Source: Candidatus Nanosyncoccus alces (GTDB lineage: Bacteria > Patescibacteriota > Saccharimonadia > Saccharimonadales > Saccharimonadaceae). From it: a DNA stretch of 64,000 nucleotides. Positions 40,971 to 49,243 of the stretch are shown one piece after another. The notes beneath the pieces are model-generated. The model did not search any database, was not told the origin of the DNA, and was given only the letters and a program-made list of their open reading frames with translations. The stretch lies in assembly GCF_004138395.1 (NCBI RefSeq), contig NZ_PRLM01000001.1:1-64000 (forward strand), given 5' to 3'. How positions within the stretch are numbered: the stretch's first letter is position 1; the number at the start of each line of letters is the position of its first letter. The position numbers and the translations under genes were made by a program.

Positions 40971-40974
40971 AAAT

Positions 40975-40997
40975 AAACTCCTGACTTGCTGGAGTTT
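40975..40997 (+). terminator. Terminator of uvrD/pcrA
   Basis: AAACTCC / GGAGTTT with a 9-nt loop lies 4 nt after the stop codon. Confidence 0.6.
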
Positions 40998-41239
40998 TAC
41001 TAGTTTTTACCTGATAAAATATTTTGATTGGCATTGCACGTCAGTTTGAAGCATCGCTCTTGCCGTCCTTTGCGAGATGATACGGATAATCCCAAAAGCC
41101 ATTTTTGCACCAATCTGCGCCAATTTCGAAATTATCCGTATCAGCTCGGATTTCTCTCTATTCTCCAGGGAGGCTCAACAAGCCAAAACTATACAAAATG
41201 CCTAAATAACTGTGCTATATGCTAATTCAATTCAAGACC
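40998..41239. other. Non-coding stretch with inverted repeat
   Basis: No gene is recognised. At 41074-41090 and 41131-41147 lie 17-nt inverted repeats (GAGATGATACGGATAAT and ATTATCCGTATCAGCTC, one mismatch) around a 40-nt centre. The centre has no match I can see to the GC-rich elements in uvrD and pepN. The surrounding sequence may be decayed DNA at the island edge. Short frames here look accidental. Confidence 0.5.
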
Positions 41240-41574
41240 TTGGCTACAGCTCCGTTCTTTGTTGAGTTTCTTTTAATGTTTCTTTGGCTGGGATGTAGTC
41301 TCCTAAACACTCTTCTCTTAAAGTCTCATAATATCATCTTGGAACTTTTTACCAAACTCCGGGCCATTATCTGTTTGAATCGTATCAAAATTAAAACCAA
41401 ACTTCTTTCTCGCTAAAAGTACAGCTTTTGCAGAATGATATTGTTGTATCTATACCACTTACTTTTAGCTCTTTCTAAATGTGCTCGTTTAATAATTCTC
41501 CTGACACTAGATAGACTAATATCTATGCCTTTATCTCTAGCTTTTTCTTGTAGTTTTGTTTTATTATAGGACAT
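41240..41574 (-). pseudogene. IS481-like transposase remnant
   Basis: On the minus strand a 53-aa frame (41574-41413) reads SYNKTKLQEKARDKGIDIS then SLSSVRRIIKRAHLERAKSK, the helix-turn-helix/linker type found before the DDE domain. A different frame (about 41433-41318) then reads AKAVLLARKKFGFNFDTIQT and DNGPEFGKKFQDD, containing the conserved second catalytic Asp block TDNGPEF. A third frame (about 41320-41245) reads REECLGDYIPAKETLKETQQ. The first catalytic Asp region and the C terminus are missing. Frameshifts and deletions show it is inactive. It marks past transposition into the uvrD-tRNA-Pro interval. Confidence 0.8.
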
Positions 41575-41635
41575 AGGTAGTCTCTACTTTCTATAGGTTA
41601 TTTTACTTTTAAATCTACAGTTTAGAGGACTACCT
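41575..41635. repeat. Inverted repeat at the transposase remnant
   Basis: AGGTAGTC-TCTA (41575-41586) and TAGAGGACTACCT (41623-41635) are inverted repeats (one extra base) lying just upstream of the transposase start codon. They may be an IS end region or its promoter/operator. From 41636 to 41683 nothing else is recognised. Confidence 0.5.
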
Positions 41636-41683
41636 TTTTGTTGGCAATATTTGTTGCGAGGGTGCTGAGTTAATATGTAAACA

Positions 41684-41712
41684 TTGACATTTTATTTAAA
41701 GTGTGCTATAAT
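41684..41712 (+). promoter_or_regulatory. Consensus promoter of the island helicase
   Basis: TTGACA (41684-41689), a 17-nt spacer and TATAAT (41707-41712): a perfect sigma-70 consensus. Other promoters in the window mostly rely on an extended -10 without a good -35, so this is foreign-looking and likely strong. Confidence 0.85.
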
Positions 41713-41719
41713 TGTACTT

Positions 41720-41752
41720 ATGGAGCTTATGATTAAGTTTCAGGCAAATTAA
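41720..41752 (+). other. Possible leader peptide upstream of the helicase
   Basis: An ATG 7 nt after the -10 opens a 10-codon frame (MELMIKFQAN) ending in TAA at 41750-41752, directly before the structured leader. The geometry matches a leaderless start. Coding is unproven; the frame is too short for composition tests. Confidence 0.3.
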
Positions 41753-41757
41753 TAATG

Positions 41758-41856
41758 ATTCCCCCCTGTTATCGGTAGGATCAAGAGTACCTTTACTGGC
41801 ACTATTGATTCCGCCGATAACGGCGAGAATATTCTTTTTATTCTTGAAGGGGGAAT
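41758..41856 (+). promoter_or_regulatory. Leader RNA structure that can hide the helicase ribosome binding site
   Basis: ATTCCCCC (41758-41765) is complementary to GGGGGAAT (41849-41856), which contains the Shine-Dalgarno sequence of the helicase. Nested inside, GTTATCGG (41768-41775) pairs with CCGATAAC (41814-41821). The folded form would block translation; a trigger that opens it is unknown. Confidence 0.6.
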
Positions 41857-41860
41857 TACC

Positions 41861-43828
41861 GTGGACACTACTAAACCGAGAAATTACCAACAGAGCTGCC
41901 TTGAGAATCTCGCTCTTGCGAGAGAACAAGGCGCGAATAAAGCATTGGTTGTGATGGCGTCTGGTCTAGGTAAAACCTTGACCGGCGCTTTCGACATCAA
42001 GAACTACCTGAACTCGGCCCAGGGCACATGCCAAAACAGGCGTGTGCTCATACTCTGTCACTCCGAAGCAATCCTGAGCCAAATCAAGGAAGTCTATAAG
42101 ACTCTGTTTGGCGAAGAATACAGATACGGAATGTACAACGGCTTTGAGAAAGCGACTCATCAGACAGACTTCCTGTTTGCAAATTTGCAGTCTGTAAATC
42201 TGCATAAGGATGAGTTCGATCCGAATGAGTTCGTTTACATTCTCGTAGACGAGGCTCACCACAGTCCCGCAAAGACCTACCGGCAAGCGATCGAATACTT
42301 CCACCCGCAGTTTCTGCTGGGTATGACGGCCACGCCGGAACGCATGGATGATGCTGTTCTCTCCGAGATATTCGGGGAAACGGCGTTTGAGTATCGGCTG
42401 GTGGACGCTGTCCAAGACGGATGGCTGTCCGAAGTGGAGTATCGTGTAAAGACGGATGAATTACAGAAGCTGGAAACCATCCTAGATTCCGGCGAGAGGT
42501 TCTCCCTGTCTCAACTGAACCGTGAGGTGTTTGTGCCGAAGCGGGATGAAGAGATTGTCCGGATTATTCGCGAGGATATTTCGGGCAAGAACGATCCCAC
42601 GATGGTTGTTTTCTGCCAAACCATTGCTCACGCGGAGAAATTCGCAGAGCTGATGGGCGACGCGGTGGTAATCCACTCGCAGATGAGCAACGAGGAACGG
42701 AACCGGAGGCTGAAAGGCTTCCGCTCTGGGGAAATCAAGACCGTTTGCGCCGTGGACATCCTGAACGAGGGCATCGATGTACCGAGGACTGACGTGATCG
42801 TTTTTTTACGCGTTACGCAGTCCAAGATCGTGTTTACCCAGCAACTGGGGCGTGGCCTTCGCCGCGCTAAGGGGAAGGGTAACGTCCTCGTACTGGACTT
42901 CGTCTCGACGGCGACCCGGCTGGAGATGCTGTACCGGTTCGAGCGCGAGTTCAAGGAGGCAACCGGGCGTTACGTACGTAGGAAGCAAACCGAAGAGAGG
43001 GAGTATTTCAATCTCGATATCGAGGCCCCCGTCTTCCGCGAGCGAAAGGTGGACATAATGGCTCTGATCGAGAGGGCGAGGCGCGTCAGCGAACGTTATA
43101 ACTCTACTTATACAGACGAGGAACTGATTTCTCTGCTAAAGGCATTTGCCGAAAAACGGGGGCATGCTCCGACGCAAACAGAAGCAGATATGAGTCAAGA
43201 AATACCGGCTTCGACGACATACGTAAAACGATTTGGAACTTGGGAAGCAGCGATGTCTTTAGCGGGAATGAAAGCGTATCGTAGTTATTATTCTGATACA
43301 AAGATGATTGAATTGCTGCGCAATTTCATTGAGCGATTAGGGCACATTCCAACGATAGGTGAAATTGATGCAGACGAAACGATGCCGTGTTCCGCGACGT
43401 ATATCTGCCATTTTGGTTCTATAGAAAGCGCAATCAAGAAGGCTGGATACAACTATGGACGCGCCAAAAGAAAAGTATCGTATGAAGAGGGAATAGTTCT
43501 GCTAAAAGAGTTTTTCGAGAAGACTGGACATCCGCCCAAGACGACAGATCTAGGGAAAGGAGTTCTTCCCTCCTATCTTTTTTACACGAGGAAATACGGT
43601 TCATGGTCGAATGCATTAGCACTTGCAGGGCTTGGAGTGGTTGGAAAAAATGCAGGCTATTCTGATGAAGAAATGTTAAATCTACTTAGGGATAAGGCAG
43701 AGCGTGATGGCAAGGTGCCGTCACGCAGAGAAGTAGAGGCAGACCCCGATATGCCGAGTGCGACGACTTACAGAGCACATTTTGGAAGTTGGGAAAATAC
43801 TCTCAGACTAGCTGGTCTGAAAAAATGA
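41861..43828 (+). CDS. SF2 DEAD/DEAH-type helicase with four homing-endonuclease-associated repeats
   Basis: The 655-aa protein has an SF2 core like the Type III restriction/UvrB-like group: NYQQSCLENL (Q-like), ASGLGKT (about 33-39), DEAH (about 130-133), GMTATPER, and motifs V-VI in ILNEGIDVPRTD and QQLGRGLRRAKGKG. From about residue 415 follow four diverged copies of about 55 aa with the pattern Y(S/T)DEE.I.LL..F.E..GH.P......(M)P...TY...FG.W..AL..AG, the pattern of homing-endonuclease-associated repeats (HNH_repeat), which may bind DNA. No nuclease domain is seen. The first 400 codons are GC-richer and C-richer than neighbours, suggesting transfer. The GTG start is preceded by AAGGGGG. 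Possible role: mobile-element or defence protein. Confidence 0.85.
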   Translation: MDTTKPRNYQQSCLENLALAREQGANKALVVMASGLGKTLTGAFDIKNYLNSAQGTCQNRRVLILCHSEAILSQIKEVYKTLFGEEYRYGMYNGFEKATHQTDFLFANLQSVNLHKDEFDPNEFVYILVDEAHHSPAKTYRQAIEYFHPQFLLGMTATPERMDDAVLSEIFGETAFEYRLVDAVQDGWLSEVEYRVKTDELQKLETILDSGERFSLSQLNREVFVPKRDEEIVRIIREDISGKNDPTMVVFCQTIAHAEKFAELMGDAVVIHSQMSNEERNRRLKGFRSGEIKTVCAVDILNEGIDVPRTDVIVFLRVTQSKIVFTQQLGRGLRRAKGKGNVLVLDFVSTATRLEMLYRFEREFKEATGRYVRRKQTEEREYFNLDIEAPVFRERKVDIMALIERARRVSERYNSTYTDEELISLLKAFAEKRGHAPTQTEADMSQEIPASTTYVKRFGTWEAAMSLAGMKAYRSYYSDTKMIELLRNFIERLGHIPTIGEIDADETMPCSATYICHFGSIESAIKKAGYNYGRAKRKVSYEEGIVLLKEFFEKTGHPPKTTDLGKGVLPSYLFYTRKYGSWSNALALAGLGVVGKNAGYSDEEMLNLLRDKAERDGKVPSRREVEADPDMPSATTYRAHFGSWENTLRLAGLKK

Positions 43829-43842
43829 GGGTGTTCATTATA

Positions 43843-43867
43843 GGCCCCGACTTACGTCGGGGCTTTT
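43843..43867 (+). terminator. Terminator of the island helicase
   Basis: GCCCCGAC-TTAC-GTCGGGGC followed by TTTTT, 14 nt after the stop codon. Confidence 0.92.
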
Positions 43868-44435
43868 TCATGCCAACAATAGAGTTTACTAATATTGTTA
43901 TTGATCGACTTCACCTGATTAATGAATATATGACAGCAATCGCGATAGTAATAATTATTGTAGGCTTGAGAAATAAGTTAACCACAGACAATAGACGTAA
44001 GTTTGTTTTTAGCTCTATTATACCAGATAATATAGATACGATTGCTAGCGGAACACCCAATGTCCAATAGTTATAAGCCACTAAACTGCGCCTGGTCCAT
44101 TTTCATTTGCGCTTCCACCAGAAACTATCAGGCAGTAAAATCAAACCAATATTGGGATAATAGTAGTTATTATTGATAAAACCGAGTAAGCTTTTCGTTC
44201 TTGCATTCTGTTTTGTCCTATTTCTGTAATGCTTTCAGTCGAAGGCTGAATCGTCGGATTACTTTCTTTAGATCACAAGATTTGTACCCCTTCAACTACT
44301 GTCCAAATATATGATATTACTATGAGATGTTGCAAAAACATGGTTATTACAGATGTATTATAGCGATTGTCTGCATTGCTGCACAATGCGTTAGTTATCA
44401 TGTGCGGGGCATAGCACGCAATAGCTATAATAAAA
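43868..44435. other. Decayed DNA between helicase and tRNA-Pro cluster
   Basis: No intact gene is recognised. On the plus strand a frame from 43870 to 44070 (MPTIEFTNIVIDRLHLINEY...) has one hydrophobic stretch but no ribosome binding site. On the minus strand, near 44215-44090, MQERKAYSVLSIITTIIPIL, then a stop, then LIVSGGSANENGPGA look like pieces of a broken small membrane protein. The stretch is AT-rich with frequent stops in all frames and is best read as remnants. Confidence 0.5.
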
Positions 44436-46774: not shown

Positions 46775-49243
46775 ATGGAAAGATTGATTAATTATTTTGT
46801 GCCAGAGAAATATATTCTGGATCTTGAGGTAGATAAGGGTGCTAAGACTATCGGCGGTAAGGTGATGGTGTTGGGACAGGCAAAAGCGGAAAATATTAAA
46901 TTTCACGCAGTGGGTTTATCTGTTGACTCGGTGGTGGTAAACGGTGAAAGTGCCAAATTTGAAGTGGCAGATGGCGTTTTGACAGTATTTAAAGTATCTA
47001 GCGGCGATTTGAAGGTAGAAATAGGGTACCACGGCACTTTAAATGAAAATATGCAAGGAGCGTACCTTTCTACCTATGAGTATGATGGCAAAACAGAGGT
47101 GATAGTGGCGACGCAGTTTGAAAGTCATTATGCTAGAGAGGCTTTCCCTTGTATAGATGAACCGGAGGCGAAGGCAGTGTTTGAATTATCGATTTCTATT
47201 CCGGATAGTTCGGAAGATATAATATTGTCTAATACGCTAGAACTAAAGTTTGATTCGTCGCCGCGTCCGTCCGGCCCGTCGCCACGGGCGGACGGCGCTA
47301 ATTCTCGCGCTGCCGCGCTCCGAAATGCGCCGAATCAAACTTTAGCTTCTGGCTATAAAACTATTTCTTTCCAACCAACTCCTAGAATGAGCACATACTT
47401 ACTCGCCTGGGTGATTGGTAAGTTTCACGGTAAAACGGTGAAAAATGCGCATGGAGTGGAGATTACGACGTATTGTTCACTAGCGCAAGATATAGATTCG
47501 GTGGATTTTGCTAATGAGATTGCCGCGAAATCTTTGGAATTCTATGATGACAATTTTGGCGTGCCGTATCCTTTAAAAAAAATAGACCAAGTAGCGTTGC
47601 CAGACTTTGAAGCGGGAGCGATGGAAAACTGGGGATTAGTGACATATCGTGAGTCGATGCTTCTGGCTGGTAAAAATGCGACGCTTGGTACTAAAAAAGG
47701 TGTAGCGCTAACTGTGGCGCATGAGTTGTCGCACCAATGGTTTGGTGATTTGGTAACAATGGACTGGTGGGATGATTTGTGGTTGAACGAATCGTTTGCT
47801 AGTGTAATGGAATATTACGCGGTGGATTATATTCATCCGGAATATAAGATTTTTGAAGGATTTTTCACGGGGGATTCATATGCGGCATTAATGCGTGATG
47901 CATACAAAGATGTGCAATCGGTGCATCAGGATGTAAATAGTCCAGAGGAAATTGCTACGCTATTTGATGGAGCAATCGTGTATTCCAAGGGTGCACGACT
48001 GATGTTGATGTTGATTCGGGCGATGGGTTGGAAAAATTTTTGTAGAGGCATTCGTGATTATTTTGAGAAGTTTAAATATCAGAATACGGTGGGGGATGAT
48101 TTGTGGGCGGCATTGAAGCCATATGCCGAGTTTGACCCGGGCAAATTAATGCACGCATTTATTGACAAGCCGGGATATCCGGTGGTAACTGGAGAAAAAC
48201 AGCAGAGATTCTTGTTGGACGGGCCTTTAGAAGATGAAAATTGGCCGTTGCCAGAAATTAGTGAAGACATGAGCGGACATTATATTTTGAATTTGACGGA
48301 TGCGGAATTTGAAGAAAGGCTGGCGCGGTTTGATGAATTAGATTTGGAAGAAAAGCTGCGGCTTTTGATAGACCGGAATTTGTTGGCGAAGACGGAATTG
48401 GTAAGTAGCGCATCATTGCTACCGCTGGTGGCGAAGTTTAAAAATGAAGAAGCGGCGGCGGTATGGAATATTGTTTTGGCTATTGTGGGGAATTTAAAGA
48501 TTTTCTTTGAAGCTGGTTCGGCGGAAGAAAAGAAATTTAAGAAATTTGTGGGCGAACTGGTGGCGCCGAAATTGGCAGAGATTGGTGTGAAGACGCGAAA
48601 AGATGACGACGAAAACACCATTCGGCTGCGAGCGATATTACTTAGCTTGGATTACTATGCGGAAACAGTGGAGAATCTGGAAAAGCTGGCGGCAATGTAC
48701 AGTAAAAATTACGAAAAACTGGATACGGAGATTCGCGAAGATATTTTGGATGCGAAGCTTTATTTAGAGCCGGGCGTGATAGACGATTATTTGAAAGCGT
48801 ATCAAAAGATTGCCGATCCAGAACTGAAGTTTGAGTTGTTATTTGCTGGAACTTTATCGAAAGATGAAAAAGTGTTAGCGAAGATGCTAAGTTTACTGGA
48901 AAAACCGGAAATTGTAAAGCCGCAAGACCAAACGCATTTGTTTATTTATCTATATCGTAATTTGAAATCGCGTGAGCAAGCGTTTGAATGGCTGACAAAA
49001 CATTGGGACTATGTAAAGAAAATGGCGGGAGATAAATCCTTAGATAGCTATCCGCGATATATGGCGAATGTGATTCGGGCGGAAAAAGAATATCGGGCAT
49101 GGCGAGATTTCTTTGAGCCAATGAAAGATAATCCGGCACTAGCGCGCGCGATTAAGATTGGCGAAAGAGAAATTAAGGCACGGTTAAAACTAATTGCAGA
49201 TGATAAAGTGGCGGTGTGCGCTGAGCTAGATGCTATAATGTAA
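46775..49243 (+). CDS. pepN: M1 family zinc aminopeptidase
   Basis: This 822-aa aminopeptidase cleaves N-terminal residues from peptides in the cytoplasm; for an organism with few biosynthetic genes it would supply amino acids. It has the GAMENWG exopeptidase motif (about 281), the zinc motif HELSHQWFGDLVTMDWWDDLWLNE (given in part; HELSH about 316), and a C-terminal ERAP1-like helical domain. TGGAGG precedes the ATG. Residues about 157-190 are an insertion encoded by a palindromic element (47243-47345), placed in a loop between ISIPDSSEDIILSNT and TISFQPTPRMSTYLLAW, before the catalytic domain. Confidence 0.95.
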   Translation: MERLINYFVPEKYILDLEVDKGAKTIGGKVMVLGQAKAENIKFHAVGLSVDSVVVNGESAKFEVADGVLTVFKVSSGDLKVEIGYHGTLNENMQGAYLSTYEYDGKTEVIVATQFESHYAREAFPCIDEPEAKAVFELSISIPDSSEDIILSNTLELKFDSSPRPSGPSPRADGANSRAAALRNAPNQTLASGYKTISFQPTPRMSTYLLAWVIGKFHGKTVKNAHGVEITTYCSLAQDIDSVDFANEIAAKSLEFYDDNFGVPYPLKKIDQVALPDFEAGAMENWGLVTYRESMLLAGKNATLGTKKGVALTVAHELSHQWFGDLVTMDWWDDLWLNESFASVMEYYAVDYIHPEYKIFEGFFTGDSYAALMRDAYKDVQSVHQDVNSPEEIATLFDGAIVYSKGARLMLMLIRAMGWKNFCRGIRDYFEKFKYQNTVGDDLWAALKPYAEFDPGKLMHAFIDKPGYPVVTGEKQQRFLLDGPLEDENWPLPEISEDMSGHYILNLTDAEFEERLARFDELDLEEKLRLLIDRNLLAKTELVSSASLLPLVAKFKNEEAAAVWNIVLAIVGNLKIFFEAGSAEEKKFKKFVGELVAPKLAEIGVKTRKDDDENTIRLRAILLSLDYYAETVENLEKLAAMYSKNYEKLDTEIREDILDAKLYLEPGVIDDYLKAYQKIADPELKFELLFAGTLSKDEKVLAKMLSLLEKPEIVKPQDQTHLFIYLYRNLKSREQAFEWLTKHWDYVKKMAGDKSLDSYPRYMANVIRAEKEYRAWRDFFEPMKDNPALARAIKIGEREIKARLKLIADDKVAVCAELDAIM
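47243..47345 (+). repeat. GC-rich palindromic element inside pepN
   Basis: Perfect 15-nt inverted arms CTAAAGTTTGATTCG (47243-47257) and CGAATCAAACTTTAG (47331-47345) enclose a strong hairpin, CGTCCG-CCCGT-CGCC-ACGGG-CGGACG (one bulged G omitted). CGGCCCGTCGCCACGGGCG (47272-47290) matches the uvrD element at 17 of 19 positions, and TTCTCG and CTCCGAA follow in the same order in both. The two genes read the shared core in different frames. The AT-rich host gene becomes abruptly GC-rich here. Confidence 0.88.

What the first reader, a model, noticed from the sequence alone, without database searches (positions are those of the whole stretch)
41861..43828. SF2 helicase with four homing-endonuclease-associated repeats, foreign composition
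Seen: a DEAH-type helicase core followed by four diverged ~55-aa repeats with the HNH_repeat pattern, no nuclease domain, base use unlike neighbours in the first 400 codons, a perfect sigma-70 promoter and its own strong terminator. The gene stands alone in an island with a transposase remnant beside tRNA genes. Inference: a self-contained cargo gene, possibly a stand-alone defence or mobile-element protein in which the repeats recognise DNA and the helicase remodels it.
Basis: partly seen in the sequence, partly recalled or inferred. Interest (0 to 1): 0.65.

Follow-up and report, generated by a model that had tools for sequence, protein, structure and literature searches.

The report
Mobile DNA motor with swappable repeats
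A lone, horizontally moving gene of tiny gut-dwelling bacteria encodes a DNA-motor protein whose tail of DNA-recognition-like repeats is exchanged wholesale between near-identical copies, much as restriction enzymes swap their target readers, and whose mRNA start is locked in a conserved folded leader.

Summary
Confirmed and extended. Window 41861-43828 encodes an SF2 helicase/translocase with intact motifs, four HNH_repeats and no nuclease. It fills a 3.46-kb island between pcrA and three tRNA-Pro genes; a same-genus genome has these about 60 bp apart. Some 23 of 174 genomes of the genus carry a homologue, at differing sites, without recurrent neighbours. The nearest solved structure is the restriction enzyme SauUSI, minus its nuclease and with its reader domain replaced by repeats.

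Best reading: a mobile, target-specified DNA translocase used in conflict (defence or inter-element exclusion). Function, DNA binding and any nuclease in trans are untested.

The parts
41684..41712 (+). sigma-70-type promoter TTGACA-17-TATAAT
   Evidence: read directly from sequence
41720..41752 (+). possible leaderless 10-codon upstream ORF (ATGGAGCTT...TAA), also a small 5' hairpin; low confidence
   Evidence: 10-codon ORF at the same distance from the -10 box in G022 and G165, not in G111 or G092
41754..41869 (+). conserved three-way-junction leader RNA whose outer stem pairs the Shine-Dalgarno sequence (AAGGGGG 41847-41853)
   Evidence: z -7.8 fold in the window; same fold in 3 homologues, 8 pairs with two-sided changes, 95.8% cells paired against at most 60% when slid; covariance model hits only these 4 leaders convincingly in 174 genus genomes
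41861..43085 (+). SF2 helicase/translocase core (about codons 1-408): Walker A ASGLGKT, DEAH, TAT, QQLGRGLR motifs intact
   Evidence: Pfam, alignments, AF2 model and Foldseek with SauUSI at rank 1
43109..43276 (+). HNH_repeat unit 1
43289..43456 (+). HNH_repeat unit 2
43475..43639 (+). HNH_repeat unit 3
43658..43825 (+). HNH_repeat unit 4
43844..43869 (+). intrinsic terminator (GCCCCGAC-TTAC-GTCGGGGC-TTTTT); in relatives the cassette homology returns at the equivalent element
40971..44435 (.). island absent from same-genus genome G002 (pcrA to tRNA-Pro(cgg) about 60 bp there)
41216..41577 (-). weak transposase remnant, frameshifted pieces with rve-like DNGPEF motif
   Evidence: rve E=0.047, below cut-off

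Best explanation
It is a mobile single-gene system: an SF2 double-stranded-DNA translocase of the SauUSI/HsdR-like branch that has no nuclease and whose C-terminal array of helix-turn-helix-like HNH_repeats acts as an exchangeable target-recognition domain. Proposed action: the array docks the protein on a foreign DNA sequence, docking switches on the ATPase, and translocation strips or stalls proteins on that DNA (or feeds a cellular nuclease), so that the invading element fails. Specificity is changed by swapping the array as a cassette. Expression is held down by a leader RNA that hides the Shine-Dalgarno sequence until an unknown signal opens it. Shown here: architecture, mobility, array exchange, alternative arrays, leader RNA with covariation. 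Inferred: DNA binding by the arrays, translocation, the conflict role, and opening of the leader.
For: Domain make-up and absence of a nuclease. Nearest solved relative by sequence and fold is SauUSI 7clg, matched over its ATPase and part of its coupler; in SauUSI the part after ATPase and coupler is the target-recognition domain, and target binding activates translocation (PMC7913695). PADLOC best models are type IV restriction enzymes, core only. Cassette exchange: G092b against G022 core 98.0% aa and 92.5% DNA, arrays 31% aa with no DNA match, junction right after the core's last helix, homology back at the terminator, flanks unrelated. Array type switches on the core tree: sister cores L131 (INT_rpt) and L133 (HNH_repeat) at 100/99 support, 6 changes in all; DUF4379 array in L134. 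The most variable repeat positions fall mainly on predicted helices 2 and 3 while the scaffold is conserved. Patchy, empty site, solo gene. Provirus-like contig with two tandem copies beside integrase and Panacea genes. Leader RNA.
Against: No binding, ATPase, translocation or phage data. No recurrent defence-gene neighbourhood. No nuclease in the protein, and a partner elsewhere in the genome was not looked for. Foldseek with a single repeat gave no significant match (best E 0.24 DsrC; LexA at E about 2.4), so the DNA-binding role rests on a LexA_DNA_bind profile hit, the repeat context and the exchange pattern. The clearest exchange case (G092b) comes from a MAG contig that starts inside the gene; an assembly chimera cannot be excluded without reads.
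Confidence: 0.5

Rival explanations
1. A DNA repair or replication-fork helicase (RadD/XPB-like) that happens to travel as cargo; the repeats help it grip branched or damaged DNA without sequence specificity.
For: RadD and XPB are among the next nearest structures and profiles; phage replication modules carry related helicases.
Against: Scores are far below the RadD/XPB curated cut-offs; absent from most genomes of the genus; arrays replaced wholesale by unrelated repeat families while the core is kept, hard to explain for a nonspecific grip.
Confidence: 0.15
2. An accessory protein of a homing or integrative element: arrays of kinds named from homing endonucleases and integrases guide the helicase to the element's own target or ends to promote its movement.
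For: HNH_repeat and INT_rpt are named in Pfam from homing endonucleases and integrases; genes lie near tRNA 3' ends in the window, G165 and G111; an integrase lies near the L140 pair.
Against: No intact recombinase or nuclease in the island and no direct repeats at its borders; homologues sit at unrelated sites without recurrent mobility genes.
Confidence: 0.15
3. A degraded restriction enzyme: the motor subunit of a former SauUSI/Type I-like enzyme that works only with a nuclease supplied in trans, or not at all.
For: The core is restriction-like and the PLD domain is missing.
Against: Helicase motifs are kept across some 20 homologues without a nuclease; the nuclease-less form occurs across several Patescibacteria lineages, so it is not recent decay.
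Confidence: 0.15

Closest known systems
SauUSI, ATP-dependent Type IV restriction enzyme (7clg, PMC7913695)
   Same: SF2 dsDNA-translocase core followed by a helical linker and a C-terminal target-reading part; best sequence and fold match
   Different: no N-terminal PLD nuclease; SRA reader of modified cytosine replaced by tandem HNH_repeats; stand-alone island gene with leader RNA
Type I / ISP restriction motors (HsdR EcoAI family, LlaBIII)
   Same: ResIII/SWI2-SNF2-type motor; exchange of target readers is the known way such systems change specificity (established knowledge)
   Different: no nuclease, no methyltransferase or S subunit, scores far below family cut-offs
HNH homing endonucleases carrying PF18780 repeats
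   Same: the tandem HNH_repeat array
   Different: no HNH catalytic domain; a helicase instead
RadD (YejH) and XPB helicases
   Same: SF2 core fold
   Different: below family cut-offs, different C-terminus, patchy mobile distribution
Shine-Dalgarno-sequestering leader RNAs and riboswitches in general
   Same: conserved stem hiding the Shine-Dalgarno sequence
   Different: no Rfam match; restricted to this gene in the genus; ligand or trigger unknown

Membership tests
SauUSI-like Type IV restriction enzyme | SF2 helicase-like ATPase core | tested here: met
SauUSI-like Type IV restriction enzyme | N-terminal PLD nuclease | tested here: not met
   helicase begins at residue 5; no nuclease family at E<=1
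SauUSI-like Type IV restriction enzyme | C-terminal SRA-type reader of modified cytosine | tested here: not met
   HNH_repeat x4 instead
SauUSI-like Type IV restriction enzyme | target-activated ATPase and translocation | not testable with these tools
   biochemistry needed
HNH homing endonuclease | HNH nuclease motif | tested here: not met
   no HNH family in the Pfam scan
HNH homing endonuclease | HNH_repeat array | tested here: met
   1.9e-56
Type I HsdR (EcoAI/FtnUII) | NCBIfam curated cut-off, 550 bits | tested here: not met
   124 bits
RadD / XPB repair helicase | NCBIfam curated cut-offs, 720 / 610 bits | tested here: not met
   115 and 69 bits
Known anti-phage defence protein (PADLOC) | a PADLOC model matched over its full length | tested here: not met
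   only helicase parts of mREase_IV, PbeA and HsdR models
Known RNA family (Rfam 15) | covariance-model match to the leader | tested here: not met
   no leader match at E<=1

The most novel reading that the evidence does not exclude
A family of nuclease-free DNA motors, spread through Patescibacteria, whose targets are set by interchangeable tandem repeat arrays drawn from several unrelated repeat families (HNH_repeat, INT_rpt, DUF4379), each array reading a longer DNA sequence repeat by repeat; in one lineage it is under control of a new class of Shine-Dalgarno-locking leader RNA.
Probability: 0.3. Interest if true: 0.85.

Novelty: new variant of a known kind. Interest (0 to 1): 0.62.

Why it matters
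Defence in the highly reduced, mostly uncultured Patescibacteria is poorly known. A one-gene system with a constant motor and swappable repeat arrays would show restriction-like specificity switching without a nuclease, and the repeats are candidates for a modular DNA-reading code because their variable positions sit on two helices of a conserved scaffold. The near-identical-core pair makes a clean test: same motor, different array, ask whether the target changes. The leader RNA is a new structured element whose trigger can be sought.

Tried and rejected
Rfam for the leader: no family. Leader as a scattered mobile RNA: rejected; the covariance model hits only the four helicase leaders convincingly in 174 genus genomes and no other genus in a 295-genome order sample (strict filters, weak matches may be lost). 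Direct repeats or att sites at the island borders: none. Recurrent neighbour genes in 28 loci: none beyond housekeeping synteny. Homologues in viral contigs by single query: none; one via alignment. Phage and plasmid records: only helicase-core relatives; those inspected had other architectures or contexts, e.g. a PLD-type nuclease-helicase in L141. A shared AACTTAA-like motif in several leaders: seen, not tested beyond a count in the window. Literature: nothing under 'homing endonuclease associated repeat'; 'HNH_repeat' gave only a structure-modelling paper. pcrA as same-locus anchor worked only in G002; in the other genomes what follows pcrA is different, so the empty site rests on one genome.

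Full report
Setting. The window lies in a 727-kb, six-contig genome (G000) whose nearest named relatives are ruminant-gut Candidatus Saccharibacteria MAGs.

Observation. The ORF 41861-43828, its DEAH-type core, four HNH_repeats, absence of nuclease, perfect promoter and own terminator are all confirmed. The composition claim is refined: the core is GC3-rich (0.66, z 4.9 against 41 window ORFs) while the repeat half is not (0.40, z -1.4), so the two parts of the gene have different base use. Many homologues show the same direction of difference, so it is partly a property of the family.

Island. In the same-genus genome G002, pcrA is followed after about 60 bp by tRNA-Pro(cgg), tRNA-Pro(ggg), tRNA-Pro(tgg) and ftsH; the window has 3.46 kb there. 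No direct repeats mark the borders. A transposase remnant is only weakly supported. In G165 the gene again follows tRNA-Pro(cgg), in G111 it follows tRNA-Ala(cgc).

Distribution. At E<=1e-15, 27 of 174 genus genomes match; leaving out three repeat-only hits (G020, G142, G138) and one distant large helicase (G002), 23 carry the helicase. Named relatives reach Nomurabacteria, Colwellbacteria, Falkowbacteria and Parcubacteria. Neighbourhoods of 28 loci share no recurrent partner gene. One provirus-like IMG/VR contig carries two tandem copies with six or more repeats each; upstream are a tyrosine integrase and a SocA_Panacea gene, downstream methyltransferase, HNH endonuclease and ParB-methyltransferase genes.

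Motor. The profile of 18 homologues finds SauUSI first in the PDB (E 9.7e-84, chain residues 222-686), and Foldseek on the AF2 model (mean pLDDT 81) does too. SauUSI is nuclease, ATPase, coupler, target-recognition domain; target binding activates ATP hydrolysis, which powers translocation (PMC7913695).

Arrays as exchangeable readers. G092b (L126) and G022 (L113) are 98.0% identical over the 203 core residues available and 92.5% at DNA level; their arrays are 31% identical and not alignable as DNA. The break falls right after the last core helix (...DIIALIERAR), homology returns at the terminator, and beyond it the flanks differ. Window against G022: core 75%, arrays 31.5%; G022 against G165: core 81%, arrays 60%. 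On a 39-row core tree the array type needs 6 changes; the cores of L131 (INT_rpt) and L133 (HNH_repeat) are sisters at 100/99. L134 carries five DUF4379 treble-clef repeats. Across 108 repeat copies the scaffold (G17, P20, F41, G42, A51, G52 in the numbering) is conserved while columns 22, 23, 26, 27, 30, 34, 35, 38, 39 are among the most variable; shifted by one residue to the AF2 single-repeat model (pLDDT 95), most of these fall on helices 2 (23-28) and 3 (35-42). Helix 1 has variable exposed positions too. Foldseek with one repeat is not significant, so a DNA-binding fold is suggested (LexA_DNA_bind profile hit) but not proven.

Leader RNA. The 116-nt 5' leader folds at z -7.8 into a three-way junction whose outer stem pairs the Shine-Dalgarno sequence. 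G022, G111 and G165 share it; 8 of 30 pairs show changes on both sides and 95.8% of cells are paired, against at most 60% in slid controls. Four sequences are a small sample, and the outer SD stem itself shows one-sided changes only. G092a, whose core is closest to G022, has promoter, 5' hairpin and SD but lacks the junction. The model finds no other convincing copies in 174 genus genomes, nor outside the genus among 295 of the order, and Rfam has no match. Because the leader is kept while arrays differ (window, G111, G022), the array is unlikely to be what reads the leader (inference).

Mechanism and verdict. Best reading: a mobile, target-specified dsDNA translocase used in conflict between bacteria and invading DNA, or between elements, with specificity changed by cassette swapping and expression gated by a leader RNA (confidence 0.5). 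By family membership it is neither a Type IV restriction enzyme nor a homing endonuclease, since the nuclease of each was tested and not found; it most resembles the motor-plus-reader part of the former.

Noticed in passing
L026 (G020), L082 (G142), L090 (G138), L085 (G068), L096 (G079): Stand-alone HNH_repeat proteins without helicase (several repeats, or one repeat plus a conserved unknown domain in the G079/G174/G157/G175 group); possible spare arrays or separate regulators.
   Followed up: partly
G195:C3:72284-72844 (-), upstream of the helicase G195:C3:70094-72088 (-): An HNH_repeat-only ORF directly upstream of a helicase-HNH_repeat gene, like a silent spare cassette.
   Followed up: no
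leaders of G013, G168, G192, G196 and of the repeat-only gene of G020: A (GC)AACTTAA-like motif between a 5' hairpin and the SD recurs in leaders of several family members that lack the junction RNA, and in a repeat-only gene.
   Followed up: partly
window 41720-41752; same place in L002 and L033: A 10-codon ORF starting about 7-8 nt after the -10 box (possibly leaderless) precedes the leader junction in three of the four leader-bearing genes.
   Followed up: partly
L140 4294-9263: Two tandem helicase-HNH_repeat genes in a provirus-like contig, the first with near-duplicate repeats, suggesting recent array growth.
   Followed up: partly
L118, L121, L122, L123: Four helicase loci lie downstream of an M1 aminopeptidase-like gene, a kind that in the window follows ftsH (46775-49243); possibly an insertion hotspot region.
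   Followed up: no
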